The position numbers and the translations under genes are program-made. Source: Mycolicibacterium sp. (lineage in GTDB: Bacteria; Actinomycetota; Actinomycetes; Mycobacteriales; Mycobacteriaceae). Taken from it: DNA of 64,000 nt. Under the pieces are notes generated by a model, which was given only the letters and a program-made list of their open reading frames with translations, ran no database searches and had not been told where the DNA came from. Location: positions 248,001-312,000 of the forward strand of contig JACJWN010000006.1 of NCBI GenBank assembly GCA_020637165.1, read 5' to 3'. Each line of letters begins with the position of its first letter. Position 1 is the stretch's first letter. This document shows, one piece after another, positions 8,791 through 61,051 of this stretch.

Positions 8791-8808
8791 ACTGGCAGCA
8801 TAGGGCGG

Positions 8809-39606: not shown

Positions 39607-39641
39607 CGGACCGACGGTACCGCATACCGCGGCGAACGGCC

Positions 39642-40145: not shown

Positions 40146-40154
40146 CGGGTCAGA

Positions 40155-41024: not shown

Positions 41025-41078
41025 CGGCGCATCCTACGGCGCGAACCGCTGGCGCGAACCGCTACTGGGCTGTCTCGA

Positions 41079-42485: not shown

Positions 42486-42635
42486 CGTCCCTCCTCGGTC
42501 ATCCAACCCCGTACCCGACAACGGTAGCGTTGCCCCTCCGGTTGTCTGAGTCACATCCCGGGATCCGGACGGGCCGGGTGCATCTCAGCGGGCCGGCGAC
42601 TGTCCGCTGCGAACTACACACCGTTGGCCAGCAGT

Positions 42636-42641
42636 TATAGT
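42636..42641 (+). promoter_or_regulatory. Possible -10 box ahead of the first locus GT2
   Basis: TATAGT fits the SigA -10 consensus and lies 46 bases before the ATG of the GT2 gene. No clear -35 accompanies it. It stands in the 202-bp divergent region between tgs3 and the carbohydrate locus. Confidence 0.35.
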
Positions 42642-42687
42642 GACCGCCAACGATCTTTGAGAGAACCTTCCCGAAAGCGGTGATGGC

Positions 42688-43647
42688 ATGTCGGTCGATC
42701 GAGAGGTGACGGTTTCCACCGTCGTCTGCGCCTATACCGACGCCCGCCGGGAATTGCTGAACAACTCCATCGAGTCGATCCTGGCCCAGCTGCGGCCCGA
42801 CGATCAACTGGTGGTCGTCATCGACTACAACGACGAGTTGCTGGCCCGGGTGTCGGGGCAGTACGGCACCCGCGCCACCGTGGTACCCAACCGGAATAGC
42901 AAGGGAATCTGCGGCGCCCGAAACGCCGGGATCGAAGCGTCCCGATGCGACGTCATCGCCTTCGTCGACGATGACGCCGAGGTCCAGCCGGGCTGGCTGG
43001 AACGGCTGCGAGAGGATTACCGCGACCCACAGGTGACCGGCGTCGGGGGCAATGCCCAGCCGGTTTGGCCCGACGAACGTCCGGCATGGTTTCCGGAAAC
43101 TTTCAACTGGGTGGTTGGCTGCAGTCACGAAGGCCTTCCGGTGGACCGGGCGCCGGTGCGAAACCTGCTCGGCTGCAACATGTCGTTTCGCCGCGACGCT
43201 CTCGATGCCGTGGGCGGTTTCAATTCCGAAATCGGGCAGGTCGGCGCGAACCTGATGAGGTGCGACGAAACGGAAATGTGTATCCGGATCAACCAGGAAA
43301 CCACCGCGCCCTTGCTGTTGCTCGACCCTGCGGTCAAGGTTCGGCACTGGGTGTCCGATGACCGGACCACCTGGAAGTACTTCCTCCGTCGATGTTTCTG
43401 GGAGGGCTACTCCAAGCGGCAGTTGAGCACGATGGTCGGCCCGTCGGACGCACTCAGCACAGAGCGTCAGTACACGGTAGCCGTCCTACCGAAGGCCTTG
43501 GCAAGGGAAATTGTTGCCGGCATCCGATCGCCCGGCCGAAGGTCGGGTCATTTCGGGAAGAGCGCCGCGATCGTGGTCGGGTTCGCCGCGACTGCCTACG
43601 GTTACCTGTACGCCACTGTGAAGTCCTGGTTGCCGCGCCAGAGATAG
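42688..43647 (+). CDS. GT2-family glycosyltransferase, first gene of the carbohydrate locus
   Basis: A 319-residue GT-A-fold glycosyltransferase. The nucleotide-sugar region begins STVVCAYTDARREL; the metal-binding acidic motif is VDDDAEVQPGW; CDETEMCIR contains the likely catalytic-base region. It has NCGARNAG-like ICGARNAGIE typical of the family. A C-terminal hydrophobic segment (SAAIVVGFAATAYGYLYATV) probably anchors it to the membrane. No QxxRW or multiple membrane helices as in processive synthases. ATG 42688. It is followed within 40 bp by the BcsB-like gene. The acceptor and sugar are unknown. Confidence 0.85.
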   Translation: MSVDREVTVSTVVCAYTDARRELLNNSIESILAQLRPDDQLVVVIDYNDELLARVSGQYGTRATVVPNRNSKGICGARNAGIEASRCDVIAFVDDDAEVQPGWLERLREDYRDPQVTGVGGNAQPVWPDERPAWFPETFNWVVGCSHEGLPVDRAPVRNLLGCNMSFRRDALDAVGGFNSEIGQVGANLMRCDETEMCIRINQETTAPLLLLDPAVKVRHWVSDDRTTWKYFLRRCFWEGYSKRQLSTMVGPSDALSTERQYTVAVLPKALAREIVAGIRSPGRRSGHFGKSAAIVVGFAATAYGYLYATVKSWLPRQR

Positions 43648-43685
43648 CCGTGGAGAGTTTCCCGAAATTCGCTAGAGTTTCGCCG

Positions 43686-45791
43686 GTGAGACGTCTGCGT
43701 CGCGTGAGTGCACTGGCCGGGGTGGCATCGCTGATCGTCCTGGCGCCCTGCACGACGCCGTATGCGGTGGCCCAGCCGACCGAACCGCCCCCGCCGCCCA
43801 CGCCCATCCCGGGCGGTCCGGCGGTGCCCGATGCGCCGATCTCCGGCCAGCGGGTTCCCGCCGACGCCCCGCCGGACGCACCGCCGGGCGATACGACGTT
43901 CGCGCTGGCCGACCTCGGCTCCTCGAATACCATCTGGTTCGACGCCCGCCGCGACGTCACCAGCAGCACGATTTCGTTTGTCACCCTGACCGGATTGATT
44001 CCGGACCGCCTGAACGCGACGCTTGAGGTTCCGGTCGACCTGCGGTTCGGGTATCTGACCGTCACTCAGAACGGCCGGACCCTCAGCAGGATACCGCTGC
44101 CACCCAAAGACCAGTCCCGGATGGCGATACCCCTCGACGGTATCGAGGTGTTCGACAACTGGGCCAGCGTCACGCTGACGATCACCGCGGTACCCGCGAT
44201 CGACTACTACTGCTGGGAGCCACAAAGTCCGATCCGCCTCGTCGACAGCTCCATCACTTTCGGCGGCACCCCGACCCCTCCGACAACGGTGGCCACCTTC
44301 CTGCCCCCAGCTCTGGGCAAGGTCAGCATCGCGGTGTCGCGCACCCTGACTCCGGCAGAATCGGAAGCGGCCATCCAGCTGGCCGCGGCCCTGACGACCC
44401 GGTACGGCTGGCAAGGCACTGACATCGGGGTCGTCCCCCTACCCGACGGCGCGACCACACTGCCTGAGGCGGCGGCCGGCGAACGGCAGATCGTCATCAA
44501 AGAGGGTCCGGAGCCGGGACTGGCCCTGCAGCCCGCCGCGGGAGTGCCCTCGCTGCTGATCTCAGGTGAGGGTGACGAACTGACGAACCAGACCCGCTTG
44601 CTGACCGACCCCTCGCTGCGGTTCGCACTCAGCGACAAGGCGGTGGCCGGCCCACTGACGACTGAACTCAAGCCGGCCGGTGATGCGGTGACCCTGACCA
44701 AACTCAAGCAAAAAGTCAACGTTTCCGAATCGCTGCGGCCGGAGGCGACGATCACCATCGACCAGAGCGTGTTCGCGCAGCCGGTGGACGACATGCGGGT
44801 GCACCTCATCGGATCCTTCACACCGCTGCCGACCAATTTCAACGGCGATCTAACCGCCTCGATCGGCGACACGGTGATCGATCGGTGGCCGGCCAACGCC
44901 GAGGGCACCATCGACCGCTGGATCGACATCCCCAACCGGCTGGCGCAACGAGCCACCGGACTGAAAATCCGGCTGCACACCACCGGCGATCCCGGGCACT
45001 GCAACGACTTCCTGGACCCCGTACTGCGGATCGACGGGAGTACCGAGATCTCGGTTCGCAGGGCCAGTCCGCCTTTACCGCCAGGTTTCCGATCGCTTCC
45101 GCAGGCGCTCATGCCGCGCATTCAGATCGGTATCGGACCCGACACCTTCAACGACACCGTTCGGGCCGCCCGGATCATCGTCGGACTTCAACGCAGCAGT
45201 AGCCTGCCGCTGATCACCGCGGTGACCGCTCTCCAGGATGCGATCAACAGCAGCGAGCCGGCAGTCCTCATCTCCGCCGACGGCTGGAACGACCAGTCCC
45301 TGACCCTGCCTATCAGCGCCGACCTCGGGAAAATCAGTATCGACGCGATGAACAGTTCTGGAGATCCCACCACGCTGAACCTGGACCCGGCGATCCGGTT
45401 CGGGTCTTTGCAGACGGTGTTCGACGGTCAACGCACGGTGCTGATCGCCACCTCCACCGGCGACCCGGCACAACTCGACGAACTGCTGCGCTGGCTGGCA
45501 CTGGATCAGGGCCGCTGGTCGGACCTGGATGGAAGGGCCGTCATCTCGGTGGCGGGCAGCGAGCCCGTAACGGTACCCAACCGGCCCAGCGACCTCCCAG
45601 CGGCCGACGAATCCGATGGGCACGGTCAAAGCGCCGGCGATTGGGTCTGGTGGGCTGCCGGCGGGATTGCGGTGCTCGCCCTGGCCGGCGCGGCCCTCAT
45701 CGTCATGCGCACGAGAAAGGCCACCGCCGCGGCCCAGGCGGCCACCGTAGCCGAGAATGACGAACAACCGACCGACACCGGCGAGCGCTAA
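43686..45791 (+). CDS. Secreted, C-terminally anchored BcsB-like protein
   Basis: About 701 residues. It has an N-terminal signal peptide (VRRLRRVSALAGVASLIVLA), a Pro-rich spacer, beta-rich domains and one C-terminal membrane helix (WVWWAAGGIAVLALAGAALI) with a short charged tail. The first domain has the BcsB-like run LNATLEVPVDLRFGYLTV, VTQNGRTLSRIPLP, and a Cys-Trp segment YYCWEPQSPIRL ending in an SSITF strand. BcsB guides nascent polysaccharide across the envelope in cellulose export. However, no BcsA is present, so only fold-level similarity is claimed. GTG 43686 gives the cleanest signal peptide; GTG 43650, two bases after the upstream stop, is an alternative. Confidence 0.58.
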   Translation: MRRLRRVSALAGVASLIVLAPCTTPYAVAQPTEPPPPPTPIPGGPAVPDAPISGQRVPADAPPDAPPGDTTFALADLGSSNTIWFDARRDVTSSTISFVTLTGLIPDRLNATLEVPVDLRFGYLTVTQNGRTLSRIPLPPKDQSRMAIPLDGIEVFDNWASVTLTITAVPAIDYYCWEPQSPIRLVDSSITFGGTPTPPTTVATFLPPALGKVSIAVSRTLTPAESEAAIQLAAALTTRYGWQGTDIGVVPLPDGATTLPEAAAGERQIVIKEGPEPGLALQPAAGVPSLLISGEGDELTNQTRLLTDPSLRFALSDKAVAGPLTTELKPAGDAVTLTKLKQKVNVSESLRPEATITIDQSVFAQPVDDMRVHLIGSFTPLPTNFNGDLTASIGDTVIDRWPANAEGTIDRWIDIPNRLAQRATGLKIRLHTTGDPGHCNDFLDPVLRIDGSTEISVRRASPPLPPGFRSLPQALMPRIQIGIGPDTFNDTVRAARIIVGLQRSSSLPLITAVTALQDAINSSEPAVLISADGWNDQSLTLPISADLGKISIDAMNSSGDPTTLNLDPAIRFGSLQTVFDGQRTVLIATSTGDPAQLDELLRWLALDQGRWSDLDGRAVISVAGSEPVTVPNRPSDLPAADESDGHGQSAGDWVWWAAGGIAVLALAGAALIVMRTRKATAAAQAATVAENDEQPTDTGER

Positions 45792-46666
45792 TCAGCGGGC
45801 TGCCAGTGCACCCAGTCGACCAGCATGGCGGCCGGGAATTCGGTGGTGCCGTCGGGCGATCCCGCCCAGTCGCCCCCGACCGCGAGATTGAGGATCAGAC
45901 AAAACCGCTTGTTGTACACCCACGTGGCTTCGGGCGGCAAGGACTGTGGCGTGAAGTCAGCCCAGACGACATCGTCGATACCGATGATGATGCGGTCCGG
46001 CCGGTGGATCAGCCAGTAATCGTGGAATTCCGCACTGAGGTCCGGCGAATCACCGGCGACCTGCGCCTGGAGGTAGTCCTCGACATCCGGAATCGGGCCG
46101 TGTAGCGACGAGTACCGTCGGGTGGGATCGGAGACCACCTCCACCACGTCGATCTCCCCCGCCCCGGGCCACGGATTTTTGTCCTCGTCGGCCCCCATCA
46201 ACCAGAACGCCGGCCACAGTCCCTTGCCGTCGGGCATCTTGATGCGCGCGATCAGGGTGCCGTAGCCGAAGGCCGCCTTTCGCCGGGTTTCCACGCGACC
46301 TGAGACATAGCCGTCATCCGCCCTCTCCGCGCGCAGCGCAAGATGCCCCTGCCCGTCGAGGACCGCATTCTCCCGCGCATACGTCTGGTCCCCTCGGTCC
46401 CAGCCGGCGCCCTCGACCACTGTCCATTTCGCCGGGTCCGGCGGGGCTCCTGCCGGACCGTCGAAATCGTCGAACACCTCCGTCGATGACGCTTTGGCCG
46501 GGGCTTGGTCGCCCGATGCGTCCCCGGCCAGCGGGATGGTGGGAGGCGGGCTGATACAGCCGTGTGGCGGGGCATCGACATCGCCGGGGGGCAAACCGAA
46601 CACCAGGCCGAGTGCCGCCGCGCACGCAGCCGCCAAGCCGAGTCGCACAGTTCTGACCACTTCCAC
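45788..46666 (-). CDS. Secreted GH16-family glycanase
   Basis: A 292-residue GH16 beta-glucanase-like enzyme. The catalytic motif is GEIDVVEVV, with E171, D173 and E176 (E-x-D-x2-E). Surrounding landmarks are GTLIARIKMPDGKGLWPAFWLMG and FHDYWLIHRPDRI, ending with ILNLAVGG. A signal peptide precedes (RLGLAAACAAALGLVFG). GH16 enzymes hydrolyse or transglycosylate beta-1,3/1,4-glucans, galactans or agarose; inside a synthesis locus it probably trims or releases the product. The GTG start is 5 bp after the wzx-type gene, and the 3' end overlaps the convergent BcsB-like gene by 4 bp. Confidence 0.88.
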   Translation of the reverse strand: MEVVRTVRLGLAAACAAALGLVFGLPPGDVDAPPHGCISPPPTIPLAGDASGDQAPAKASSTEVFDDFDGPAGAPPDPAKWTVVEGAGWDRGDQTYARENAVLDGQGHLALRAERADDGYVSGRVETRRKAAFGYGTLIARIKMPDGKGLWPAFWLMGADEDKNPWPGAGEIDVVEVVSDPTRRYSSLHGPIPDVEDYLQAQVAGDSPDLSAEFHDYWLIHRPDRIIIGIDDVVWADFTPQSLPPEATWVYNKRFCLILNLAVGGDWAGSPDGTTEFPAAMLVDWVHWQPAD

Positions 46667-46671
46667 CGGGC

Positions 46672-48042
46672 TTAGATCTCCAACGTTCCGGATTCTCCCA
46701 TGCGGGCGATGCGGGCCCCGGGCCCTGAGGCGTCGGCGTCGCCCTCAGCCCCCGGCCCGGCGATGGTGATGTGGCCGCGGTAGGTCCGCCATACCAGCGG
46801 TGTGCACACAACGACCTCCACGGCGATCGCAACCAGCCAGCCGAGACCCAACCCGAACAGCCCGCCGTGGTACGCGCCGATCGCCGCCGCGATGATCTCG
46901 CCCGCACCGAGAGCCGTCATCAGCGCTGCTTCGCGCCCGACGCGACCGGCGATCCGCGCGACGGCCACGTGGTGATCCCTGATGATCACGCCGAAGGCTC
47001 CGAGGCACAACACGATCAGCAGCGTGTGACCGTTCGTCTCATAGGCCGGCCCGAAGATTCTCAGGACCAGCCCACCGAACGGCAGGATGATCAGGTTGGC
47101 GGCCGCACACGCGGCCATCGAGCTTCTGAGCGTGAGGCGGATTTCGCGCAGGATAGTTCCGGAATCCTTTGCGCCGGAGGCGAAGAGGGATATCGACATC
47201 GCCATCGGAAGCATGAAGACGAATCCGGCCAGCGACCACGTCGCGTAGAGGTAGCCGGCCTGCTCCGAACCGAGGAGAACATTGGCAATGATCGGCATCA
47301 TGTAGTAGGGCACCGACAATGACAGGTTCAGCACATGGTGTTTGACGGCGTGGAAATGCAGCCCGTCCAGCGTGGATAGTCGAGGACGCAGCTCACGCAG
47401 TGGCAGGCGATAGTCCCGGAGCAGCTTGATGCCGACGATCAGAATCGACAACAGACCCGCGATGAACCAACTGGCGTAGATACCCAGCGAACCGTACCGA
47501 ATCAGCGTGATCGCGAAGACACCCAGCAGAACGAGCTTCGCGGAGGCAAAGACCGCGTTACGGCGGAGTTGGATTCCACCGCCGGTGGCGCTCAGCAGCG
47601 CGTTGTCGAGAAGCAGACCGACCGCATGGGCCGCGACGCCCCCCGCGAAAAGCGCGGTGACCCAGACGTTGGTGCCGATTCCCGGCAGCCCCATAAATGC
47701 GCCCGGCAGTATCAGCGCGCACCCCACGGCAACCAGACAGGCGGCGAGTGCGCAGATCACGACGGCGGTCGAAACGAGTTGGGCGCGGCCGGAACGCATG
47801 GTGGGGAGCTTCGATATCAACGCTGTGCCGAAGCCCAGAACCGTGAACGGTGCGATCAAACTCATCGCCGAGATGGCTGTCGTCGACTCGCCGACGGCGG
47901 TAACCGGGTACATCCGGGCGGCAAGGGTCCAGAAGACGAAACCCAGCGCGGAGGTAACGACCGACGTGGACACCAGCGCGGCCACATTGCGCAGCAGGAA
48001 ATTCCGCTTCTGTCGTTCTGTATCGTCTCCGGAACTGTTCAT
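46672..48042 (-). CDS. Wzx-like MOP-superfamily flippase
   Basis: A 456-residue protein with about 12-14 hydrophobic helices and few charged residues in them, typical of the polysaccharide-transporter (PST) branch of the MOP superfamily. Recognisable landmarks include FLLRNVAALVSTSVVTSALGF at the N-terminus and the ARMYPVTAVGESTTA loop seen in lipid-linked-oligosaccharide flippases. The C-terminus is a polar 30-residue tail. It would move undecaprenyl- or decaprenyl-linked repeat units across the plasma membrane. It starts 9 bp after the GT-C-like gene and precedes GH16 by 5 bp, forming a three-gene operon. Confidence 0.83.
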   Translation of the reverse strand: MNSSGDDTERQKRNFLLRNVAALVSTSVVTSALGFVFWTLAARMYPVTAVGESTTAISAMSLIAPFTVLGFGTALISKLPTMRSGRAQLVSTAVVICALAACLVAVGCALILPGAFMGLPGIGTNVWVTALFAGGVAAHAVGLLLDNALLSATGGGIQLRRNAVFASAKLVLLGVFAITLIRYGSLGIYASWFIAGLLSILIVGIKLLRDYRLPLRELRPRLSTLDGLHFHAVKHHVLNLSLSVPYYMMPIIANVLLGSEQAGYLYATWSLAGFVFMLPMAMSISLFASGAKDSGTILREIRLTLRSSMAACAAANLIILPFGGLVLRIFGPAYETNGHTLLIVLCLGAFGVIIRDHHVAVARIAGRVGREAALMTALGAGEIIAAAIGAYHGGLFGLGLGWLVAIAVEVVVCTPLVWRTYRGHITIAGPGAEGDADASGPGARIARMGESGTLEI

Positions 48043-48051
48043 CTTCGCCGC

Positions 48052-50397
48052 TCAATTCGGTTGTACGTCCGGAGGTGCGTGCACGGACTGCGGGTCGTCG
48101 AGTATGTTCCGCACCTCGACGATATCCACGGCGGCGGCGTCGTAGACCGCGAAGCCGATGATCGCCGCCAGAGGGACCATCAACGCTCCGGTGACCAACA
48201 GCCCGCGAGCAGTCACATGCCGGGTGAGATGCCGCAGTGTCGACGCCGCTCTGCCCGGAAAGACCAGCACCGGGACAGCGAGTGCGGACACGACCAGAAG
48301 GGGGGTCAGCCAGACGTGCAGCAACAGCAGCGCTGCCGAAGACAGGCCGACCGCGGCCAGCAGGACCGCCGCCCCGTCGGCGGGTCCGAACACACGCCGG
48401 AGCCTCGAGGCCTGCCCGGCGATTCGGGACCAGAATCGGCGGCCCATCAACCATGCGACGAAGAGCCCGACCACCAAGCCCACGGCCACCTGGTCGACGG
48501 GCCGAAATACCGGTGTCGATCCCACCCAGCCGTTCCGGTACTCCGTGAGGCCGAGTCCTTTGAGATCGTAGATCGACACGGGGCCGTGCCGGTAAACGGT
48601 TTTGATGCCCGGGACTTTGTCGAATTTGGTGAGCTGCGCGGCGGTGAACTTCTTACCCTGATCGACTTCGCCGCTGGCGAAGTAGTAGCCGAATGGGGGA
48701 AGGCTGTCGGCCATCCGCTCGTCAACGTACAGGTACCGGATCTTCAGCGCATTGGCCTTGTCGGTCTCATCCATACCCCACTGATACGGGACGTAGAGTT
48801 CGGGCGTCTTCACCCCGTTAAGACCTTCGTACACAGGCCACAGACGAGCGTCCGCAGCCAGCAGGACCGCACTGACGCGGTCGGCGCCGATGCGGCTTCC
48901 GGGGGGCAGCGATTCACCGGCCCATTTCACCGCCGCCAGGGTTTCGGCGTCCATGGAGCGAGAGTCCGCGGCGGGCAGGTAGCTACCGGGAAGGCGGGCC
49001 CAAGCCGGACCGCTGCCGAGCACGTATCCCCCGAGGAACACCACCGACGCCAGCACCGAGCCCACGAGATGCCACAGTCGCCCGTGCCGGGTGGGCTCGG
49101 GACCGAACTGTTGCGGCGGGCGATCCGGCAAGCGCCCCATGTGCCACCAGTCCAGGCGACCCATGTAGTTGACCACCACGAAGCTCAGTGGGAGAAAGAG
49201 GAAGCTGCTGGAGCGGGTGAAGATCTCGACACCTTTGGGAACCACCCGCGCGGCAAGCAGGACCGGGATCGCGAGGCTCAGGCCCATCACCAGCAGTTGG
49301 GGATTCCAGTAGTACAGGTCATGCTCACGCCGGCGCTGCCAACGCACCGTGAGGAAGAACAACGCCATCACGGTGAGTGTCAGGGCGCCGGCGTAGGTGA
49401 GCAGAAGGACCCTGTCCATCAGCGGGGTCGCCGTGCCGGCCGAGTCCTGGAACGCCTGCCGGCGAACACCGCCACCCAATTCGGACGCCAAGTCGTCGAT
49501 CATGGGCCCGAAATACTGCTCCAGCGTGGAACGCTGCACGATCGCCCACAGCACCGTCGCGGACAGTCCCGCCATGGCTCCGTAGGCCACCCGGATGCGA
49601 GCCTCCCCACGCTCGGCAAGGGTCCACACGATGAGGAAGGTGACGGTGAGGAAGCTCGTCAGATGGTGGGTAAGAGCTACTCCCAGCAAACACACCGTGG
49701 CACCGCCCAACAGGGGCAGCGGCTCGTCGGCATCGCGCGCCCTGCCGATCAGGCTGATCGCGCCGAGCGCAAGCGGCAACGCGAGGGTCTGGTACGAGAA
49801 CTGGGAGTTGAACCAGACGAACTGCGGCGAGAGGGCGTACACCGCGACCGCCAATCCGCCGGCACGAGAGCTCTCGGTGAGAAGTTCGACGGCGTCGCAC
49901 AGAACGAACACCAGAACGAGCCGGGCGATCAGGATGAGTGTTACCGCCGCCATCATCGGGGGCAGTCCGAGTTCGTTGAAGACGACCGTGACGGTTTCCA
50001 ACCCCGGGTAGCGGGGGCTGACGTCGAGCACCGGATTCGGCTGGAACAGCTGGTGCGAGGAGATGATGTCGGCCAGAGTGCGAAGGTGCAGTTGCTCGTC
50101 AAAGCCGGTGAGGAGCAGCGGGTCGGTAGCCCGCGACATGAGCGTCGGGGTCACCGCCAGGCAGGCGATCGCCATGTTCCGCGAGGTCCGGGTCAGTCTG
50201 GGCCGGGTCATCACCCAGACCGCACTGCCGTACATGACCCCCATGCTGACGGTGGACAGGATGTCGGCCGCCCCCTCGCCGCGGGTGCGGGCCAAGTGAA
50301 CTGCCCAGACCTGGCCTGCCAGGGCAACCAGCTGCCAGCCGATCAGGATGATGCGCCCGCGACGCTCGGAGAGCGCGGGGACAAAACCGGTCGCCAC
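48052..50397 (-). CDS. Large multispanning GT-C-like membrane protein
   Basis: A 781-residue integral-membrane protein with roughly 12 helices plus a long soluble loop (about 490-640). An acidic pair in the first outer loop (GFDEQLHLRTLADI) matches the D-E signature of GT-C glycosyltransferases, which use polyprenyl-phosphate sugars. A THHLTS helix follows. The C-terminal part returns to hydrophobic helices. It could transfer a sugar to the growing unit or act as polymerase; sequence alone cannot separate these. The GTG start lies in a region with 16-bp tandem repeats, divergent from the GT4 gene. It is followed by the flippase. Confidence 0.68.
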   Translation of the reverse strand: MATGFVPALSERRGRIILIGWQLVALAGQVWAVHLARTRGEGAADILSTVSMGVMYGSAVWVMTRPRLTRTSRNMAIACLAVTPTLMSRATDPLLLTGFDEQLHLRTLADIISSHQLFQPNPVLDVSPRYPGLETVTVVFNELGLPPMMAAVTLILIARLVLVFVLCDAVELLTESSRAGGLAVAVYALSPQFVWFNSQFSYQTLALPLALGAISLIGRARDADEPLPLLGGATVCLLGVALTHHLTSFLTVTFLIVWTLAERGEARIRVAYGAMAGLSATVLWAIVQRSTLEQYFGPMIDDLASELGGGVRRQAFQDSAGTATPLMDRVLLLTYAGALTLTVMALFFLTVRWQRRREHDLYYWNPQLLVMGLSLAIPVLLAARVVPKGVEIFTRSSSFLFLPLSFVVVNYMGRLDWWHMGRLPDRPPQQFGPEPTRHGRLWHLVGSVLASVVFLGGYVLGSGPAWARLPGSYLPAADSRSMDAETLAAVKWAGESLPPGSRIGADRVSAVLLAADARLWPVYEGLNGVKTPELYVPYQWGMDETDKANALKIRYLYVDERMADSLPPFGYYFASGEVDQGKKFTAAQLTKFDKVPGIKTVYRHGPVSIYDLKGLGLTEYRNGWVGSTPVFRPVDQVAVGLVVGLFVAWLMGRRFWSRIAGQASRLRRVFGPADGAAVLLAAVGLSSAALLLLHVWLTPLLVVSALAVPVLVFPGRAASTLRHLTRHVTARGLLVTGALMVPLAAIIGFAVYDAAAVDIVEVRNILDDPQSVHAPPDVQPN

Positions 50398-50517
50398 GCC
50401 GCTGATCTGCTCAGCGGCGCGGGAGCCGTGTGTGGTGTTGTCAGTCAGGTTGGCCGGGTTCCTTCTGATCTTGATCCGATTCCGGTCGTCCTACCATCGG
50501 GTATTCGGTCCGACAAA

Positions 50518-50565
50518 GGCTAGAAGTACGGAAGGCTAGAAGTACGGAAGGCTAGAAGTACGGAA
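50518..50565. repeat. Three 16-bp tandem repeats in the divergent promoter region
   Basis: Unit GGCTAGAAGTACGGAA occurs exactly three times at 50518-50533, 50534-50549 and 50550-50565, between the GT-C-like and GT4 genes (about 290 bp apart). Confidence 0.94.
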
Positions 50566-50688
50566 GCACTGGCCATGTGCGCCGGTCGTGCGCTTTAGGA
50601 TCGGAGGGCGAGACCCCCCAGCAATACCGAGGCCCATCGCACCACCACATGAGTGGGTATCGGACCCTACCGCTATCCGAAGGTAACC

Positions 50689-51897
50689 ATGCGCATCTTG
50701 ATGCTCATCGATTCCTATCCGCCGATGATCGGCGGTGCCCAGCAGTACGTACGGAATCTGAGCATCGAACTGGTCGCGCGGGGGCATGACGTGGCGGTCG
50801 CCACGCTGGCGGGCAACGGATTGGAGCCGTATGAGGAAGACGCCGGGGTGCGGGTGTACCGCCTGCGCGGGACTCTTCAACGGTCCGAGCGGATCTTCCG
50901 GGACCGCACCTACGCACCGCCGGTTCCCGACCCGGAACTTCTCGGCGCACTCGCCGATGTGGTTCGCCGGGAACGTCCGCACGTGGTTCATTCGCACAAT
51001 TGGATGGGCCGCTCCTTTCTGCCGTTAAAGCGGCGTAGCAAAGCCAAGCTCGTCGCCACCGTGCACGACTACAACATGCGCTGCGCAAACTGGATCCTGA
51101 TGCGCGACGGGGAACCGTGCAGCGGGCCGGGTGTCGCCAAGTGCCTCTCGTGCGCAGCGGTCAGCTACAACGGGCGGATCAAGGGCGCCGCGGTCGCCGC
51201 GGGCAACTGGGCGATGGCCGCACCCGAGCGACGCATGGTCGACATGTTCATCCCGGTGAGCCACGCGGTCGCGGCCGGCAATCGGCTGACGGCCGGATCG
51301 GGTCGTTGCCGGGTCATTCCCAACTTCATTCCCGACACCGTCGGGGCTCTCGGCGACGACTCCTATCGCGATCAACTCCCCGGTGAGGGGTATCTGCTCT
51401 TCGTCGGCTCGCTGACCCGCCAGAAGGGTATTCACACACTGTTGTCGGCCTATGACGGCCTCACCGCGGCACCGCCATTGGTGCTCGTCGGCTACACCCT
51501 GCCGGAGACCCCGAAATCGTTCCCTGAGAATGTTGTCGTACTCAAGAATTGGCCGCACGCCGCCGTGATGACTGCCTGGCGGCACAGCCTGGCCGGCATT
51601 GTGCCCTCCATCTGGCCGGATCCATGCCCGACCGTCGCGATGGAAGCCATGGCCCTCGGAAAACCGGTGATCGCCTCGCGTATCGGCGGGCTGCCCGAGA
51701 TCGTCGCCGACGGCGAGACCGGAATTGTCGTGACCCCGGAGGATTCCGACGAATTGCGCGCTGCCATCGCCAGGCTGGTGGCAGACCCGGCACTCGCGGC
51801 GAGGATGGGAGCCGCCGGGCAGGATCGGGTGACCTCCTTCTACGCCAGCACGGTCGTCCGGGAGATCGAGTCCGTGTACCAGGAGGTGCTCGCGTGA
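50689..51897 (+). CDS. GT4-family glycosyltransferase
   Basis: A 402-residue GT-B retaining glycosyltransferase. The N-terminal domain begins MRILMLIDSYPPMIGGAQQY, the usual Gly-rich acceptor loop. The C-terminal donor domain has FVGSLTRQKGIHTLL and the E-x7-E-like segment PSIWPDPCPTVAMEAMALGKPVIAS, where ME is the second acidic position and the first Glu is replaced by Asp (WPDP). A Cys cluster (PCSGPGVAKCLSCA) in the N-domain resembles that of several Wcf-type enzymes. ATG 50689 after CGAAGG; the stop overlaps the following GT2. Confidence 0.88.
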   Translation: MRILMLIDSYPPMIGGAQQYVRNLSIELVARGHDVAVATLAGNGLEPYEEDAGVRVYRLRGTLQRSERIFRDRTYAPPVPDPELLGALADVVRRERPHVVHSHNWMGRSFLPLKRRSKAKLVATVHDYNMRCANWILMRDGEPCSGPGVAKCLSCAAVSYNGRIKGAAVAAGNWAMAAPERRMVDMFIPVSHAVAAGNRLTAGSGRCRVIPNFIPDTVGALGDDSYRDQLPGEGYLLFVGSLTRQKGIHTLLSAYDGLTAAPPLVLVGYTLPETPKSFPENVVVLKNWPHAAVMTAWRHSLAGIVPSIWPDPCPTVAMEAMALGKPVIASRIGGLPEIVADGETGIVVTPEDSDELRAAIARLVADPALAARMGAAGQDRVTSFYASTVVREIESVYQEVLA

Positions 51898-53222
51898 GCG
51901 AAGAATTGCCCGGCTTCACCCCGATCCGGATGGTGCAGGTCGAGATCGGCGAGCCCATAGCGGGAATCGCGGCGGCCCACGACAAGCGAGGCGGGGTGTA
52001 TACCCGGGCCTGGGCGCTGGTGCGACTGCACGACGAACCACTCGGGATGGTCGAGTTGGCACTGCCCGACGGGGCCCTGCCCGCCGAGGCACTCGCCGAC
52101 GAGGTCTGGAAGCGCCTGGGAACACAGATCAACGCACATCTGCGGGCGGACGGCATGGCCGAATTGACCTCGCTCCAGGTCGCCGGGGTCACCGGCGACA
52201 GCCGGCCGCCGTGTCTGGTCGACCGCGACCGGGCCGGCGCTGACGCGCCTCTGATCAGCGTCATCATCGCCACTCGTGACCGTAGCGACAGCCTGGCGTT
52301 GTGCCTCGGCGCGTTCGATGATCTCGACTACCCGAACTACGAGATCGTGGTGGTCGACAACGCACCGTCCTCCGAGGCCACCGCCGAACTCGTCACCGGA
52401 CGCTACGCGGGCGACCCGCGGATTCACTATGCGCGCGAACCTCATCCCGGTCTGGGATGGGCGCACAATTGTGGCCTGCAGCACGCGACCGGGGAATACA
52501 TCGCCTTCACCGACGACGACGTGATCGTCGACCGGCACTGGCTCAGCGAGTTGCTGCGCGGCTTCGCGATGGGCGACAACGTCGGCTGCGTCACCGGACT
52601 CGTCGTTCCTCAGGAGATCGAGACGTCGTCACAGTATTGGTTCGACACCCACAGCGGATTCAACAAGGGGTTCCGCCGCAGGGTCTTCGACATGGGTCCG
52701 AACCGGCCCCGGGATCGGCTGTTCCCCTGGCGCTCGAGCATGTTCGGCACCGGCGCGAACATGGCCTTCCGGGCGAGCGCGCTGCGTTCCGTCGGTGGCC
52801 TGGACCCGGTCCTGGGACCGGGCACCCTCGCCAAGAACGGTGAGGACCTGGACATCTATTTCCGGATCATCGAGGCGGGCTATCAACTGGTGTACCAGCC
52901 GGCCGCGATGGTCAACCATCTGCATCGTGCCGACTACCCGGCGCTGCGGGACCAGTTCTACACCTATGGCGTTGGATTCACGGCCTACCTCACGAAACTC
53001 GTTCTGGCCCATCCGCTGGACGTCCTGCGGCTGATCGCCCGGATTCCGGCGATCATCGCCTTCGCCCGGCGTGGACAGGCCGCCGAGGCGCCGGAGGTCG
53101 AATACCCCGCGGAATTGACCAGGGTGGAACTCAAGGGCCGAATGTACGGACCGTTGGCATACCTGCGGAGCTGGTGGAACCATCGCCGCACACTCCGGCG
53201 CGATCGGTCCTATCCGAGGTAG
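51894..53222 (+). CDS. GT2-family glycosyltransferase with extra N-terminal domain
   Basis: A 442-residue protein. About 110 N-terminal residues form an unrecognised alpha/beta domain (PIRMVQVEIGEPIAG onward); then the GT-A core starts PLISVIIATRDRSDSL, with the metal motif FTDDDVIVD and EDLDIYFRIIEAGY. The C-terminal region has a hydrophobic stretch for membrane association. The GTG start overlaps the GT4 stop (GTGA), so both are made together and probably act in sequence. The 3' end overlaps convergent galE by 13 bp. Donor unknown. Confidence 0.86.
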   Translation: MSEELPGFTPIRMVQVEIGEPIAGIAAAHDKRGGVYTRAWALVRLHDEPLGMVELALPDGALPAEALADEVWKRLGTQINAHLRADGMAELTSLQVAGVTGDSRPPCLVDRDRAGADAPLISVIIATRDRSDSLALCLGAFDDLDYPNYEIVVVDNAPSSEATAELVTGRYAGDPRIHYAREPHPGLGWAHNCGLQHATGEYIAFTDDDVIVDRHWLSELLRGFAMGDNVGCVTGLVVPQEIETSSQYWFDTHSGFNKGFRRRVFDMGPNRPRDRLFPWRSSMFGTGANMAFRASALRSVGGLDPVLGPGTLAKNGEDLDIYFRIIEAGYQLVYQPAAMVNHLHRADYPALRDQFYTYGVGFTAYLTKLVLAHPLDVLRLIARIPAIIAFARRGQAAEAPEVEYPAELTRVELKGRMYGPLAYLRSWWNHRRTLRRDRSYPR

Positions 53223-54244
53223 CCGTTGGGATTCCGCTGCTGAAAATTCCATGCGTCACGGCACATCTCAGCAAGCTCCCGCGTTGTTCGCCAACCCCAT
53301 TCGCGTTCCACGAGTGAGGGATCGGCGACCAGACTGGGCACGTCGCCCGCACGCCGACCGACGATCCGGTAGGGGATCTCCTCGCCGCACGCCGCCGAGA
53401 ACGCTGCAACGAGCTGCAGCACCGAAACACCCGTTCCGGTGCCGAGGTTGAAAACCCGGAAGCCGGTGCAATCGTCGAGATGCTGCAACGCCACCCGGTG
53501 CGCGTCGGCGACGTCGACGACGTGGATGTAGTCCCGGATCGCCGTGCCGTCGGGGGTGTCATAGTCGTCGCCGAACACATTCAGCTCCGGCAGCCGGCCC
53601 ACGGCGATTTGCGCGAGATAGGGCATCACGTTGTAGGGCACGCCGAGTGGATCTTCGCCCAGTAGGCCGCTGGGATGCGCACCGATGGGGTTGAAGTACC
53701 GGAGCGCGATCACCGACAGTTCCGGCAGATGCCGGCAGGCCTCGGCAAGCAGTTGTTCGCATATCCACTTCGACAACGCATAGGGATTGGTGGGGGCGGC
53801 CGGGGCCGACTCCGCCAGGGGTTCGGCCGGAGCGTCGCCGTAAATCGAACAGGACGAGGAGAACACCAGACGGGAAACCTTGTGGTCTTTCATCGTGCGC
53901 AGCAGATTCGTCGTGCCACCGATGTTGATGTCGAAGTACTCCAGTGGAATCTGGGTCGACTCGCCCACCGCCTTTTTGGCGGCGAAGTGGATCACCGCGT
54001 CGATCGGGTGCTCATCGAAAACCCTGGACAGCGCGGAGCGGTCGCGCAAATCGGCTTGGTGAACGGTGACGGACTTTCCGGTGATCTCGGTGACCCGCTC
54101 CAGGGCGGCCGGACGACTGTTGGAGTAGTCATCGATCACCACCACCTCGTCGCCGGCATCGAGCAACTCAACGCAGGTGTGGCTGCCGATGAAGCCGGCG
54201 CCACCGGTCACCAGAATCGCCCCGGCCGCCTTCTCGATCGCCAT
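53210..54244 (-). CDS. galE: UDP-glucose 4-epimerase
   Basis: A 344-residue extended SDR. NAD loop VTGGAGFIGSHTCVELL; catalytic SSSCSIYG and YALSKWICE (Y-x3-K); substrate segment RYFNPIGAHPSG; DYIHVVDVADAH. These match GalE closely, interconverting UDP-Glc and UDP-Gal. The gene is probably monocistronic, divergent from the fusion gene over 126 bp, and provides UDP-Gal to the locus glycosyltransferases. Mycobacteria have other GalE copies elsewhere for galactan, so this one is likely dedicated. Confidence 0.92.
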   Translation of the reverse strand: MAIEKAAGAILVTGGAGFIGSHTCVELLDAGDEVVVIDDYSNSRPAALERVTEITGKSVTVHQADLRDRSALSRVFDEHPIDAVIHFAAKKAVGESTQIPLEYFDINIGGTTNLLRTMKDHKVSRLVFSSSCSIYGDAPAEPLAESAPAAPTNPYALSKWICEQLLAEACRHLPELSVIALRYFNPIGAHPSGLLGEDPLGVPYNVMPYLAQIAVGRLPELNVFGDDYDTPDGTAIRDYIHVVDVADAHRVALQHLDDCTGFRVFNLGTGTGVSVLQLVAAFSAACGEEIPYRIVGRRAGDVPSLVADPSLVEREWGWRTTRELAEMCRDAWNFQQRNPNGYLG

Positions 54245-54370
54245 AGCGCACAGAGCTCCCTACCCTCATCGGCACCGTCGTCACCGGTGAGCCGGCCGGC
54301 GCAATGATTGTAGCGATCCGGAAGCGCGCGGGTTGGTACCTTAATGGCCGGCGAAACGAAGGAGAGGTCC

Positions 54371-56695
54371 ATGCGGCCACATGCTGTATTGACCGGCGGG
54401 GCGGGCTTCCTGGGCTCGCATCTGGCGGACCGCTTGCTGGCCGAGGGCCTGGACGTGACCGTTCTGGACAATTTCTCAACCGGCTCCCCGGAGAATGTCG
54501 CCCACCTGCAGGGCCACAATGGCTTCCGACTGATCAAACTCGACGTTTCGAACTACATCTCCATCCCCGAACCGGTCGATTACGTCCTGCACTTCGCTTC
54601 GCCCGCATCGCCGATCGACTACGCCGAGATGCCGATCCAGACCATGAAGGTCGGCTCGCTGGGCACGCTGAACACACTCGGTCTGGCGATGGAGAAGGGT
54701 GCCCGCTACCTGCTGGCCTCGACCTCGGAGGCCTACGGCGACCCGCTCGTCCACCCGCAGCCCGAAAGCTACTGGGGAAATGTCAACCCGGTCGGCCCCC
54801 GCGGTTGCTACGACGAGGCCAAACGGTTCGCCGAGGCGCTCACGACGGCCTACCGGACCAAGCACGGCGTCAACACCGCGATTCTCCGGATCTTCAACAC
54901 CTACGGGCCTCGGATGCGGCCGAACGACGGCCGGGCGATCCCGACGTTCATCACCCAGGCACTCGCCGGTACCGCCCTCACGGTTCAGGGCGACGGCAGC
55001 CAAACCCGCTCGGTGTGCTACGTCGACGATCTGATCGACGGTGCGCTGCGGCTTCTGTTTTCCGATCTTCCGGGCCCGGTGAACGTCGGCAACCCGAACG
55101 AGATGACGGTGCTCGAGCTTGCCGAACTCATCCGGGAGCTCACCGGATCGGATTCGCGACTGAATTTCGTCGAACGGGCACAGGACGATCCGTCCCAGCG
55201 GCAGCCCGACATCACCCTGGCCCGGACCGCGCTGCACTGGGAACCGCAGGTCGACGTGCGCGACGGCCTGGCCAAGACGATCGCCTGGTTCCGCGATCGC
55301 GCAGCCGGCACGCTACCGGTTCCCTCCGCGGCCGCCACAGACCAGCCGCGCGAGCGGACACTGCCACGCCACAACCTTGCCGTCGTCGGCACCGGCTACG
55401 TCGGCGCCGTCACCGCGACCGGGATGGCGTTCCTCGGCCATACCGTGTGCGGGCTGGACACCAACTCGACGCGGGCGAACCAGCTGAACGCCGGCGAGGT
55501 GCCATTCGTCGAACCCGGACTTCCCGAGCTGCTGACATCGGCGATGGCCTCAGGCCGGCTCCGATTCACCGATGACCCGTCGGCCGCTCTCGCCGAAGCC
55601 GACTTCGTCTTCCTCTGCGTGGGAACCCCACCCGGTCCGGACGGGGCACCCAACCTCGAGCAGTTGGAAAGTGCCATCGAATCGCTGGCCCCGCACCTGC
55701 GCCCCGGAGCGGTCATCGTCAACAAGTCGACCGTGCCGGTCGGTTCCGGCAACTGGACCAGGACCATCCTCGAGGACGCGCTGGTGGAAACCCGCCAGCT
55801 CTCGTTCTCGGTGGTGTCCAACCCGGAGTTCCTGCGCGAGGGTTCGGCCATCGATGACTTCCTCTACCCGGACCGAATCGTCCTCGGCGGACCCGCCGCC
55901 GATGTCAGCCGGGTGGCCGAGTTGTACGAGCCGGTGCTAAACCAGTCCTTCGACGGTGGGCGCCCCGGGGTTCGGCCGCTGCTGATTACGACCGAGCTCC
56001 CATCGGCGGAGATGATCAAGTACGCGGCGAACGCCTTCCTGGCCACCAAGATCAGCTTCGCCAACGAGATCGCCCGGATGTGCGAGTTGTTCGGTGCCGA
56101 CGTCCGCGAGGTGCTGCCGGCCATCGGTGCCGACCACCGGATCGGCAGCCCCTTCCTCAATCCCGGAGTCGGTTGGGGCGGTTCGTGTTTCGGCAAGGAC
56201 GTCTCCGCACTGATCTCCGCGGCGCAGGAATACGGCTACACACCCTCGATGCTGGGGGCCACCGTCGAGATCAACCAGGCTCAGCGCTCGGCTGCGATAC
56301 GCAAACTTCAGCGCGAGTTGCACTCGCTGAAGGGCCGCCGGATCGCACTACTCGGTCTCTCCTTCAAGCCGGGAACCGATGACCTCCGGGATGCGCCGGC
56401 CCTCGACATCGCCAGGCGGCTGCTGACTGCCGGAGCCATGGTTTCGGCGTTCGATCCGGTCGTGAAGACACTGCCCGGCGAGTTCGAGGCGGTCCGACTG
56501 GCCGACGACGTCTACTCCGCCGCCGCACGGGCCGATGCCGTCGTGGTGGCGACGGAGTGGCCGGAGTTCCGCCTCATCGATCCGGAGGGACTACGCCGCG
56601 CCATGCGGGGCGATCTCATCGTCGATGGCCGCAACTGCCTGCCGGAGGCGAACTTCCACGGATCGGGACTGAAGCTGGTCGGATTCGGCTGGTGA
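54371..56695 (+). CDS. Fused UDP-glucuronate decarboxylase and UDP-glucose 6-dehydrogenase
   Basis: A 774-residue bifunctional enzyme. Residues 1-311: extended SDR of the UDP-xylose-synthase type, NAD loop [13 protein letters not shown], catalytic [24 protein letters not shown] (Y147, K151) and IFNTYGPRM. Residues 335-774: UDP-glucose dehydrogenase, NAD loop [20 protein letters not shown] and the catalytic thiol in [10 protein letters not shown] (C606), with C-terminal [15 protein letters not shown] Pro/Ala-rich linker (about 312-334) joins them. UGD makes UDP-GlcA, which UXS then decarboxylates to UDP-Xyl, so the order in the protein is product-first. ATG 54371 has AAGGAGAGG; an ATG 27 bases upstream lacks a good site. 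Confidence 0.93.
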
Positions 56696-56741
56696 CGCCG
56701 GCCCTCCTCGCCGTTCGGCACCGATCGTAAGGCGGCGGGAA

Positions 56742-57689
56742 TTGGCTCAGACGGCCCGCGATCTGCTGGCCTGGTTCGCGTTCCTGCTCGCCGCCATCGG
56801 GCTGGGCGTCCGCCACGTTCCGGTCGTCAACCACGGCGTTCTCTTCGTGGCGGCGCTCTCGCCGTATCTGACGGTGATCGCCGGGATGGCTGCCACGCTG
56901 CTGCTGGTCGCCGACCGCCGGTGGTGGGCGGCGAGCGTGACCGTGGCCGTGGTGGCCGCGGGGGTGGCGGTGCAGATCCCACGATTTCTGCCTGCCGACC
57001 GCACAGCCGGTGTCGCGGTCAGGGTGGTCACGATCAACCTCCGTGAGAGCCAGGCTGAGCTGCAATCCGTGATCGACGTCGCCCGTTCACACGCGGACGT
57101 GCTCATCGTTCAGGAACTGAAGCCCGAATTCGCCCGTGGCCTCTCCGAGCTCTCCTCAGATTTTCCGCAACGGGTGCTCGACACGAACGAGTCCCCCGGC
57201 GGGGTCGGCATCTGGAGTCGGTACCGGATGGCGAACTCGATCCGGATCGGTGGATATCAACTCGGCATGCTCGGCGTGACCGTCACGGTCCCCGGCGCCG
57301 CCGCGGACATGGTCGTGGTGGGCGCCCACGTGGTCGGCCCTTGGCCGTGGCCGATCGAAGGCTGGCGCGGCGAGTTGGCCTCTCTGCCGGGAACCCTTGC
57401 GGATGCAGCTCAGTGGGCGGGCAACGGCGCGGTGATCGTCGCCGGAGATTTCAATTCCACCACCGATATGCTGGGTTTCCGCCGGTTGCTGAAGAACGGT
57501 TACCACGATGCCGCCGAGCAGTCCGGGGCCGGGCTGAACCCGACGTTTCCCGCCAATTCGGCGGTGCCGCCACTGGTCGGCATCGACCACATCCTGGTCC
57601 GCAACGCGTCGGCGGGCGAGGTGCGAACCCTCCGGATTCCCGGGTCGGACCACCTGGGCCTGGCTGCGACGGTCCGGGTTCCGGGCTGA
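56742..57689 (+). CDS. Membrane-anchored endonuclease/exonuclease/phosphatase (EEP) protein
   Basis: A 315-residue protein with about three N-terminal membrane helices (DLLAWFAFLLAAIGLG, LFVAALSPYLTVIAGM and AASVTVAVVAAGVAV), then an EEP domain. EEP signatures are VVTINLRE, VLIVQELKPE (catalytic Glu), VIVAGDFNSTTD, and the C-terminal GIDHILV and GSDHLGL His. In the extracytoplasmic orientation it may act as a phosphodiesterase on lipids or glycoconjugates rather than DNA. TTG 56742 after GGCGGGAA. It is 46 bp from the fusion gene and closes the locus. Confidence 0.83.
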   Translation: MAQTARDLLAWFAFLLAAIGLGVRHVPVVNHGVLFVAALSPYLTVIAGMAATLLLVADRRWWAASVTVAVVAAGVAVQIPRFLPADRTAGVAVRVVTINLRESQAELQSVIDVARSHADVLIVQELKPEFARGLSELSSDFPQRVLDTNESPGGVGIWSRYRMANSIRIGGYQLGMLGVTVTVPGAAADMVVVGAHVVGPWPWPIEGWRGELASLPGTLADAAQWAGNGAVIVAGDFNSTTDMLGFRRLLKNGYHDAAEQSGAGLNPTFPANSAVPPLVGIDHILVRNASAGEVRTLRIPGSDHLGLAATVRVPG

Positions 57690-57816
57690 CCGTGACTGAC
57701 CACACCACCGTCGTCACCGTGAATACGCGGGGCCGGCCGACTGTGCCATGATCGGCGCCGAGGTTCGCCACTCTCCAGCGGGCCCGGCCGTGTCCTCCGA
57801 GCGATGGAGAGTTTCC

Positions 57817-58317
57817 GTGTCCTCCCCCTGTCCGAACGCCCCCACCGCCCCGGCGGCCGCCGTCATTCCGCTGCCTGACTACGAGCCCCCGGCAATCGGC
57901 GGGCCGCTGATCCTGCCGCCGGCGGCACCGCCGCGACCGCACCGCCGCCCCGCGTCGCCGCCGGTTCCGGTCGGCACCGACGCGGCCGCGGTCCGTTCCG
58001 CGGCCCTCTTCGCCGACGCGGCATTGCGCCGGGTGCTCGAGGTGCTCGATCGGCGCCGGCCACTGGCTCAGCTGCGGCCGATGATGGCGGCCGGGCTGGT
58101 GGATTCGCTGCCCGCGGTTGCCGGCGCGCATCGGGGCGCGGGCCCGGCGCGGTTGCGCCGGGTGGTGGCCCAACTCGCCCGGCCCGACGGGACCGCCGCC
58201 GAAGTGGCCGCCAACTACTCCAGGGCCGACCGGCGGTACGCCATCGCCTGCCGCATCGAGCAGTTCAGCGAGGCGACCGGACCGCGCTGGCGGGTGGTCG
58301 CCCTGCACATGAGCTGA
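57817..58317 (+). CDS. Rv3235-family Ala/Arg/Pro-rich protein
   Basis: About 166 residues. The N-terminal third is Pro/Ala-rich and probably disordered; the C-terminal part (from FADAALRRVLEVLDRR) is a compact alpha/beta domain ending RIEQFSEATGPRWRVVALHMS. It resembles the actinobacterial Rv3235 family, commonly placed beside secA; function unknown. GTG 57817 has GGAGAG at good spacing, so I preferred it; ATG 57748 would add 23 residues. It converges on secA1 with 4 bp between the stops. Confidence 0.72.
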   Translation: MSSPCPNAPTAPAAAVIPLPDYEPPAIGGPLILPPAAPPRPHRRPASPPVPVGTDAAAVRSAALFADAALRRVLEVLDRRRPLAQLRPMMAAGLVDSLPAVAGAHRGAGPARLRRVVAQLARPDGTAAEVAANYSRADRRYAIACRIEQFSEATGPRWRVVALHMS

Positions 58318-58321
58318 CGAT

Positions 58322-61051
<2,730 letters not shown>

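What the first reader, a model, noticed from the sequence alone, without database searches (positions are those of the whole stretch)
42636..57689. Previously unremarked complex-carbohydrate synthesis and export locus between tgs3 and Rv3235-secA1
Eleven genes: three soluble or peripheral glycosyltransferases, GT-C-like protein, Wzx-type flippase, BcsB-like surface protein, secreted GH16, GalE, UXS-UGD fusion and EEP protein, arranged in alternating operons. Together they form most of a dedicated pathway. M. tuberculosis has a different content at this position. A xylose- or uronate-bearing product would fit xylose-containing lipo-oligosaccharides known from some mycobacteria (e.g. M. kansasii), or a secreted exopolysaccharide.
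Basis: partly seen in the sequence, partly recalled or inferred. Interest (0 to 1): 0.88.

Follow-up and report, generated by a model that had tools for sequence, protein, structure and literature searches.

The report
Swappable surface-sugar locus in mycobacteria
Ten neighbouring genes in this mycobacterium look like a nearly complete kit for building and exporting a sugar coat, and related species seem to have swapped the whole kit for different versions, much as other bacteria swap capsule types; the chemistry of the coat still has to be shown.

Summary
In detail: a dense block of glycan genes (42688-57689) lies between tgs3 and Rv3235-secA1. It has ten genes, not eleven. Most enzyme calls are confirmed; the flippase and GT-C calls are moderate, and 'BcsB-like' rests on sub-threshold matches, topology and paralogue context. 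The block is an insertion: of 133 Mycobacterium genomes with both flanks on one contig, 123 have them within 600 bp. A GT-C orthologue occurs in 21 of 396 genus genomes.
Two results go beyond the finding. (1) It behaves like a capsule locus. The window and its sister G182 share 90.6% DNA up to the start of tgs3 and 98% SecA2, yet their cassettes are only 37-54% identical per protein and differ in content; G182's cassette is 80-82% identical to that of a less related genome, G032. Trees reject congruence. (2) In eight other actinobacterial genomes the flippase and GT-C homologues are one ORF, suggesting a coupled flip-and-extend pair without Wzy.
The likely product is a uronate- and perhaps xylose-bearing surface or exopolysaccharide. 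A lipo-oligosaccharide is not supported: none of the ten genes is a polyketide synthase, acyltransferase, acyl-CoA synthetase or MmpL. Product, polymerase role and capsule status are inferred.

The parts
42688..43647 (+). GT2a: family 2 glycosyltransferase, nearest curated family AglG (glucuronosyltransferase)
   Evidence: PF00535 E 7.9e-22; NCBIfam NF041394 E 2.1e-68, 230.9 bits, below its cut-off of 440
43644..45791 (+). BcsB-like exported protein: N-terminal signal-like segment, large extracytoplasmic part, C-terminal membrane anchor (exact start uncertain, GTG near 43650)
   Evidence: Two hydrophobic segments, 21-39 and 670-688; homologues in 38 of 60 genus genomes, own included; paralogues beside a processive-type GT2; sub-threshold PF03170 matches inside such ORFs in 2 of 5 genomes; no Pfam, PDB or hhalign support otherwise
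45788..46666 (-). GH16 glycoside hydrolase, probably secreted, beta-1,3-glucanase-like
   Evidence: PF00722 E 5.8e-14; PDB 2hyk E 2.3e-48; EIDVVE and one N-terminal hydrophobic segment
46672..48042 (-). Wzx-type (MOP) flippase
   Evidence: PF01943 E 7.3e-6, below cut-off; 11 hydrophobic segments; fused to the GT-C homologue in other genomes
48052..50397 (-). GT-C-like membrane protein; candidate outer-face polymerase or transferase
   Evidence: Homologues hit PMT_2 (6 of 26), DUF6541 (7), GT87 (2), EpsG (2), AftD GT-C (1) at E <= 1; D100, E101, H244 and H245 invariant in 26 sequences
50653..51897 (+). GT4: family 4 glycosyltransferase
   Evidence: PF00534 E 1.6e-27
51894..53222 (+). GT2b: family 2 glycosyltransferase, distantly MftF-like
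   Evidence: PF00535 E 6.2e-24 (longer ORF); TIGR03965 E 3.4e-33, below cut-off
53210..54244 (-). GalE: UDP-glucose 4-epimerase
   Evidence: TIGR01179 405.9 bits, over cut-off 262.3
54344..56695 (+). UXS-UGD fusion: UDP-glucuronate decarboxylase (UDP-xylose synthase) fused to UDP-glucose dehydrogenase
   Evidence: PDB 4gll E 4.8e-109 for the first half; TIGR03026 430.7 bits, over cut-off, for the second; motifs; full-length matches in 2 other of 246 class genomes
56742..57689 (+). EEP: membrane-anchored endonuclease/exonuclease/phosphatase-family protein, distantly VanJ-like
   Evidence: PF03372 E 1.7e-19; vanJ E 4e-6, far below cut-off; hydrophobic N-terminus, GDFN
41079..42554 (-). Left flank: WS/DGAT gene (tgs3-like); cassette similarity to G182 ends at 42484 near its start
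   Evidence: PF03007 E 1.1e-78
57748..58317 (+). Right flank: DUF6459 gene (Rv3235-like)
   Evidence: PF20060 E 9.2e-13
58322..61051 (-). Right flank: secA1-like gene
   Evidence: PF07517 E 3.2e-127

Best explanation
The block is an exchangeable surface- or exopolysaccharide cassette inserted between two conserved flanks, working like a capsule locus. Proposed mechanism: the UXS-UGD fusion turns UDP-Glc into UDP-GlcA and part of that into UDP-Xyl, and GalE gives UDP-Gal (identity by homology shown; activity inferred). GT2a, GT4 and GT2b build an oligosaccharide on a polyprenyl-phosphate carrier, GT2a probably adding the uronic acid (inferred). An enzyme outside the block starts the chain (inferred). 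The flippase turns the lipid-linked unit to the outer face (inferred from family). The GT-C protein, elsewhere fused to the flippase, then polymerises or transfers it in place of Wzy (inferred). The BcsB-like protein guides the chain outward, GH16 trims or releases it, and the EEP protein acts on phosphorylated carrier (all inferred). Whole cassettes have been replaced between species (shown by tree conflict with an unlinked marker; direction and agent not shown).
For: Gene identities. Insertion between flanks that are adjacent in 123 of 133 genomes. Block genes travel together: GTC, flippase, GT2a, BcsB-like, GH16 and EEP are all present in the 6 of 6 loci held whole at this site: own, G390, G182, G391, G329, G003. 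Exchange: G182 flank 90.6% DNA identical ending at 42484; SecA2 98%; cassette proteins 37-54%; AU tests reject the window+G182 clade on GTC (p 6.5e-9) and flippase (p 8.7e-43), and reject G182+G032 on tgs3 (p 1.8e-6) and SecA2 (p 3.9e-4). Flippase-GT-C fusion in eight genomes. Flippase, GT-C, GT2a and GT4 homologues co-occur in Streptosporangiaceae, Nocardioides and Solirubrobacterales records.
Against: No initiating enzyme, Wzy or Wzz/Wzc recognised in the block. The only PF02397 match of the own genome lies on another contig, and 5 of 14 carriers searched have none and 1 only a sub-threshold fragment. BcsB identity is weak; flippase and AglG matches are below cut-off. 8 of 21 carriers have the block elsewhere than at this site. 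GalE and UXS-UGD are not part of the shared core (UXS-UGD in 4 of 9 carriers at the site). The exchange rests on MAGs, so assembly error cannot be ruled out, though the G182 contig runs unbroken from Rv3235 to tgs3. AU-test groups were chosen after identities had been seen. No structure could be predicted.
Confidence: 0.6

Rival explanations
1. Extracytoplasmic decoration: flippase and GT-C protein add a sugar or short oligosaccharide to an existing envelope glycan or to surface proteins instead of polymerising a new chain, as in three-component systems or haloarchaeal N-glycosylation.
For: A MATE-family flippase plus a GT-C enzyme is the core of a described three-component system (PMC11127046, passages). 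GT2a is nearest to AglG and the UGD half also matches AglM. Flippase-GT-C fusions.
Against: Three different GTs and GalE suggest a longer unit than one sugar; no polyprenyl-phosphoribose synthase among the ten genes; BcsB-like and GH16 proteins fit an exported polymer better.
Confidence: 0.2
2. Synthase-type (cellulose-like) glucan locus in which the BcsB-like protein is the partner of a processive GT2 encoded elsewhere, and the other genes decorate the glucan.
For: BcsB-like protein; a paralogue in the own genome lies two genes upstream of a processive-type GT2 (L014); GH16 is beta-1,3-glucanase-like.
Against: No processive membrane GT2 in the block: GT2a, GT2b and GT4 have no hydrophobic segment above threshold. 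PF03170 not reached. A dedicated flippase would not be needed.
Confidence: 0.07
3. Lipo-oligosaccharide locus: the glycan is put on an acylated trehalose or similar lipid.
For: Xylose occurs in M. kansasii LOS (PMC4403928, passages); UXS present.
Against: No polyketide synthase, acyltransferase, acyl-CoA synthetase or MmpL among the ten genes; the rest of the genome was not searched for them.
Confidence: 0.05

Closest known systems
Capsule/O-antigen loci with Wzx and exchangeable cassettes between fixed flanks (cps, K loci; recalled)
   Same: Flippase, several GTs, nucleotide-sugar genes; divergent cassettes between similar flanks, in conflict with the genome background.
   Different: No Wzy, Wzz/Wzc or initiating transferase recognised in the block; GT-C-like protein, BcsB-like protein and GH16 instead; chemistry unknown.
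Three-component extracytoplasmic glycosylation with MATE flippase and GT-C (PMC11127046, passages)
   Same: MOP/MATE-type flippase plus GT-C enzyme.
   Different: No polyprenyl-phosphoribose synthase; three further GTs; GH16 and BcsB-like.
Haloarchaeal Agl pathway (AglG, flippase, GT-C AglB/AglS, UGD AglM; partly recalled)
   Same: AglG-like GT2, flippase, GT-C protein, UGD.
   Different: AglG and AglM cut-offs not reached; GH16, BcsB-like and UXS added; no target protein known.
Bacterial cellulose synthase (BcsA-BcsB)
   Same: Exported protein with C-terminal anchor resembling BcsB in topology.
   Different: No BcsA-type synthase beside it; PF03170 not reached.
Mycobacterial LOS clusters (M. 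marinum, M. kansasii)
   Same: Mycobacterial surface glycan; xylose possible.
   Different: No lipid-synthesis or MmpL gene; has flippase, GH16 and BcsB-like instead.

Membership tests
Wzx/Wzy-dependent polysaccharide locus | Wzx-type flippase | tested here: inconclusive
   PF01943 E 7.3e-6 but 26.0 bits against cut-off 28.2; 11 hydrophobic segments
Wzx/Wzy-dependent polysaccharide locus | Wzy polymerase in the locus | tested here: not met
   No Wzy family among Pfam hits of the ten genes; the GT-C-like protein is the only other large multi-pass membrane protein
Wzx/Wzy-dependent polysaccharide locus | Initiating phosphoglycosyltransferase | tested here: inconclusive
   None in the block; one PF02397 match elsewhere in the own genome; over cut-off in 8 of 14 carriers searched
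Capsule (K/cps-like) locus | Divergent cassettes between conserved flanks, in conflict with the genome background | tested here: met
Capsule (K/cps-like) locus | Product is a cell-bound polysaccharide coat | not testable with these tools
   Needs chemistry and microscopy
Bacterial cellulose synthase BcsB | PF03170 over cut-off | tested here: not met
   (best E 0.18 and 0.23, in other genomes); hhalign to E. coli BcsB probability 0.5%
Bacterial cellulose synthase BcsB | Adjacent processive GT2 (BcsA type) | tested here: not met
   Not in the block; present near paralogues
GT-C glycosyltransferase | GT-C fold | tested here: inconclusive
   Family hits in a minority of homologues; structure prediction unavailable
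AglG glucuronosyltransferase | NF041394 over its cut-off | tested here: not met
   230.9 of 440 bits
UDP-xylose synthase (UXS) | UXS homology with active-site YxxxK | tested here: met
   4gll E 4.8e-109; YDEAKR; activity not tested
UDP-glucose dehydrogenase | Nucleotide-sugar dehydrogenase with catalytic Cys motif | tested here: met
   TIGR03026 over cut-off; GGSCFGKD
GH16 beta-glucanase | ExDxxE motif | tested here: met
   EIDVVE, aligned to 2hyk
Mycobacterial LOS cluster | Polyketide synthase, acyltransferase, acyl-CoA synthetase, MmpL | tested here: not met
   None among the ten genes

The most novel reading that the evidence does not exclude
Mycobacteria have a serotype-like capsule locus: species exchange whole polysaccharide cassettes between tgs3 and Rv3235-secA1, and the polymer is made by a flip-and-polymerise pair in which a GT-C enzyme, fused to the flippase in several other actinobacteria, replaces Wzy.
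Probability: 0.35. Interest if true: 0.83.

Novelty: new variant of a known kind. Interest (0 to 1): 0.63.

Why it matters
As I recall it, the mycobacterial outer layer is usually described as alpha-glucan, arabinomannan and mannan plus strain-specific lipids. A cassette-type polysaccharide exchanged between species would be a different source of surface diversity, relevant to phage adsorption, grazing and biofilm. The flippase-GT-C fusion makes it testable whether GT-C enzymes act as polymerases in flippase pathways. Named carriers that are not MAGs exist (Mycobacterium sp. M26 and 1164985.4, Mycolicibacterium komossense DSM 44078).

Tried and rejected
LOS locus: not supported, no lipid genes in the block. 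Canonical Wzx/Wzy: no Wzy or Wzz recognised. Canonical BcsAB: no processive GT2, PF03170 not reached. Rfam over 40000-61500: 0 matches. Promoter and terminator scans: 0 promoter-like and 6 terminator-like sites, no more than in shuffles. Profiles of BcsB-like and GTC against PDB: only chance-level hits. M. marinum epsH biofilm paper (PMC12167362, passages): its closest M. tuberculosis protein is Rv2957; no link to this block was tested. Actinoplanes EPS paper (PMC13390465, passages): Wzx/Wzy and GtrA clusters in another actinomycete; gene content not compared. Paper searches (all 10): among the listed rows I saw no title or abstract start on such a locus in mycobacteria, on a flippase-GT-C fusion or on a UXS-UGD fusion; most were seen as listings only, lists were cut, and subscription papers are missing, so this is weak evidence of absence.

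Rows left out and limits: one search uses genomes with both flank matches (138 of 148; tgs3 at E <= 1e-140, 141 genomes; Rv3235 144 genomes, its table cut at the end) and gaps for the 133 with both on one contig. Trees use single best tblastn segments or fetched fragments (tgs3 8 rows, GTC 16, flippase 16; SecA2 10); in the flippase tree G275 has a very long branch. AU groups were chosen after identities had been seen. Placement of the 21 carriers: at the site 9 (G000, G390, G209, G182, G391, G329, G003, G032, G257; for G209, G032 and G257 only one flank is on the contig); elsewhere 8 (G104, G167, G067, G283, G098, G275, G354, G041; for G104, G067, G098 and G041 the flanks are adjacent, for the other four the fetched stretch lacks the flank genes); unresolved 4 (G106, G346, G274, G211). 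G257 and G211 matched GTC over part of its length, at contig ends. The two structure jobs never gave a result.
Full report
What is there. Between a tgs3-like WS/DGAT gene and a DUF6459 (Rv3235-like) gene followed by a secA1-like gene, the window holds ten tightly packed genes on alternating strands: two GT2 and one GT4 glycosyltransferases, a GT-C-like membrane protein, a Wzx-type flippase, a BcsB-like exported protein, a GH16 enzyme, GalE, a fusion of UDP-xylose synthase and UDP-glucose dehydrogenase, and a membrane-anchored EEP-family protein. The window's genome (3.85 Mb, 32 contigs, 94% complete) is unnamed.

How sure the parts are. The UXS half matches human-type UDP-glucuronate decarboxylase 1 (4gll, E 4.8e-109) and the UGD half passes TIGR03026; both motifs are intact. 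GH16 is nearest to a beta-1,3-glucanase and keeps ExDxxE. GalE passes its cut-off. The first GT2 is nearest to AglG but below that family's cut-off. The flippase is just below the PF01943 cut-off. GTC hits no Pfam family itself; of 26 homologues DUF6541 hits 7, PMT_2 6, GT87 2, EpsG 2 and AftD 1, at E up to 1. 'BcsB-like' rests on topology, on paralogues near a processive-type GT2 in this genome (L014) and another (L043), and on sub-threshold PF03170 matches that fall inside such ORFs in 2 of 5 genomes searched, none of them the own genome; hhalign to E. coli BcsB found nothing.

Distribution. GTC at 45% identity or more was found in 21 of 396 genus genomes, own included; 22 more have weaker matches. 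In the order, 14 of 298 genomes match, own included. A scan of named genomes gave 26 loci: 16 near the window's type, mostly MAGs, plus Mycobacterium sp. M26, Mycobacterium sp. 1164985.4 and Mycolicibacterium komossense, and 10 distant ones (Streptosporangiaceae, Kineosporia, Lapillicoccus, Kineococcus, Pseudokineococcus, Humibacillus, Nocardioides, Solirubrobacterales). Several MAG names suggest lakes, rivers, bays or sewage; habitats were not looked up. The flanks are normally adjacent: of 148 genomes, 138 gave both flanks, 133 on one contig; 123 have a gap under 600 bp, 8 about 2 kb, 2 large (own 15.2 kb, G003 9.8 kb). Five of the 2-kb cases were fetched and three read: each holds one ABC-transporter-like gene, so the site accepts other cargo. 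Nine carriers have the block at this site, eight elsewhere, four could not be placed.

Cassette exchange. G182 (HKST-UBA37, L095/L124) is a sister of the window's species: SecA2, unlinked to the block, is 98% identical, ppk2 98% and tgs3 95%, and DNA identity is 90.6% from 37256 to 42484, close to the start of tgs3. There similarity stops: within the cassette only two patches align (65-67%), proteins are 37-54% identical, and content differs (GNAT, methyltransferase and ATP-grasp-like genes and a further GT4; no GalE, GT2b or UXS-UGD match). On the far side Rv3235 is 80.6% identical over 320 bases. G182's nearest cassette is that of G032 (GTC 81%, flippase 82%, BcsB-like 80%), whose own sister G329 (SecA2 96%, tgs3 94%) carries a third type. 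AU tests reject window+G182 and G329+G032 as clades on GTC and flippase, and reject G182+G032 on tgs3 and SecA2. By contrast G257 (HKST-UBA35) keeps about 93% over the part held, 50006-59552, block and flank alike. G329 combines its type with a UXS-UGD fusion 84% like the window's, so modules move too. Cassette GC is 65.8% against 69.3-69.5% in the flanks. These genomes are MAGs, so chimeric assembly is possible, but each conflict is seen in a contig that joins cassette and flank. The behaviour is that of capsule and O-antigen loci (recalled).

Flippase-GT-C fusion. No fused frame was reported for any mycobacterial locus held. Such fusions argue that the two act together, probably on one lipid-linked substrate. 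With no Wzy recognised in the block, GTC is the best candidate for the outer-face polymerase; a transferase role is the main rival.

The UXS-UGD fusion. Among 246 class genomes, full-length matches occur in the own genome, in G053 (79%) and in G699 (65%, one TGA inside); G737 and G779 have the two genes side by side. Among the nine carriers at this site it is in four: own, G257, G390, G329. If both halves work it makes UDP-GlcA and UDP-Xyl from UDP-Glc.

Initiation. The own genome has one PF02397 transferase, on another contig among transposase-like genes. Of 14 carriers searched 8 have one over cut-off, 1 a sub-threshold fragment and 5 none, including G104 (99% complete), so a WecA- or DPM1-like enzyme may start the chain instead; this was not tested.

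Verdict. Inferred: sugars, polymer, polymerase and location on the cell.

Noticed in passing
L014 8817-15598 (own genome, contig C30): A second BcsB-like gene (44% identical) followed by an unknown 509-aa gene, a processive-type GT2 and a PMT-like gene; BcsB-like homologues occur in 38 of 60 genus genomes.
   Followed up: partly
L174 2399-12712 (own genome, contig C30): The genome's only PF02397 sugar transferase, in ORF 7510-9063, beside a GT4-like gene, a flippase-like gene and several transposase-like ORFs (the last three judged by eye, no family search): possibly a second, IS-disturbed polysaccharide locus.
   Followed up: partly
L175, L176, L177 (gap between tgs3 and Rv3235 in G021, G049, G087): The same insertion site carries one large ABC-transporter-like gene (Walker motif seen by eye, no family search) in three genomes read; eight genomes have a gap of this size.
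   Followed up: partly
G000 contig C27, 59933-62350: A third SecA-like protein, 53% identical to SecA1, besides SecA1 and a 44% SecA2-like match; G283 has a similar extra copy.
   Followed up: no
L086 5076-6344; L096 13419-14678; L095 1437-2696: Relatives' cassettes carry a gene with similar N-terminus in each; the L096 copy has only weak ATP-grasp hits. It is absent from the window, between GT2b and GalE in L086; it could add an amino acid or other group to the glycan.
   Followed up: partly
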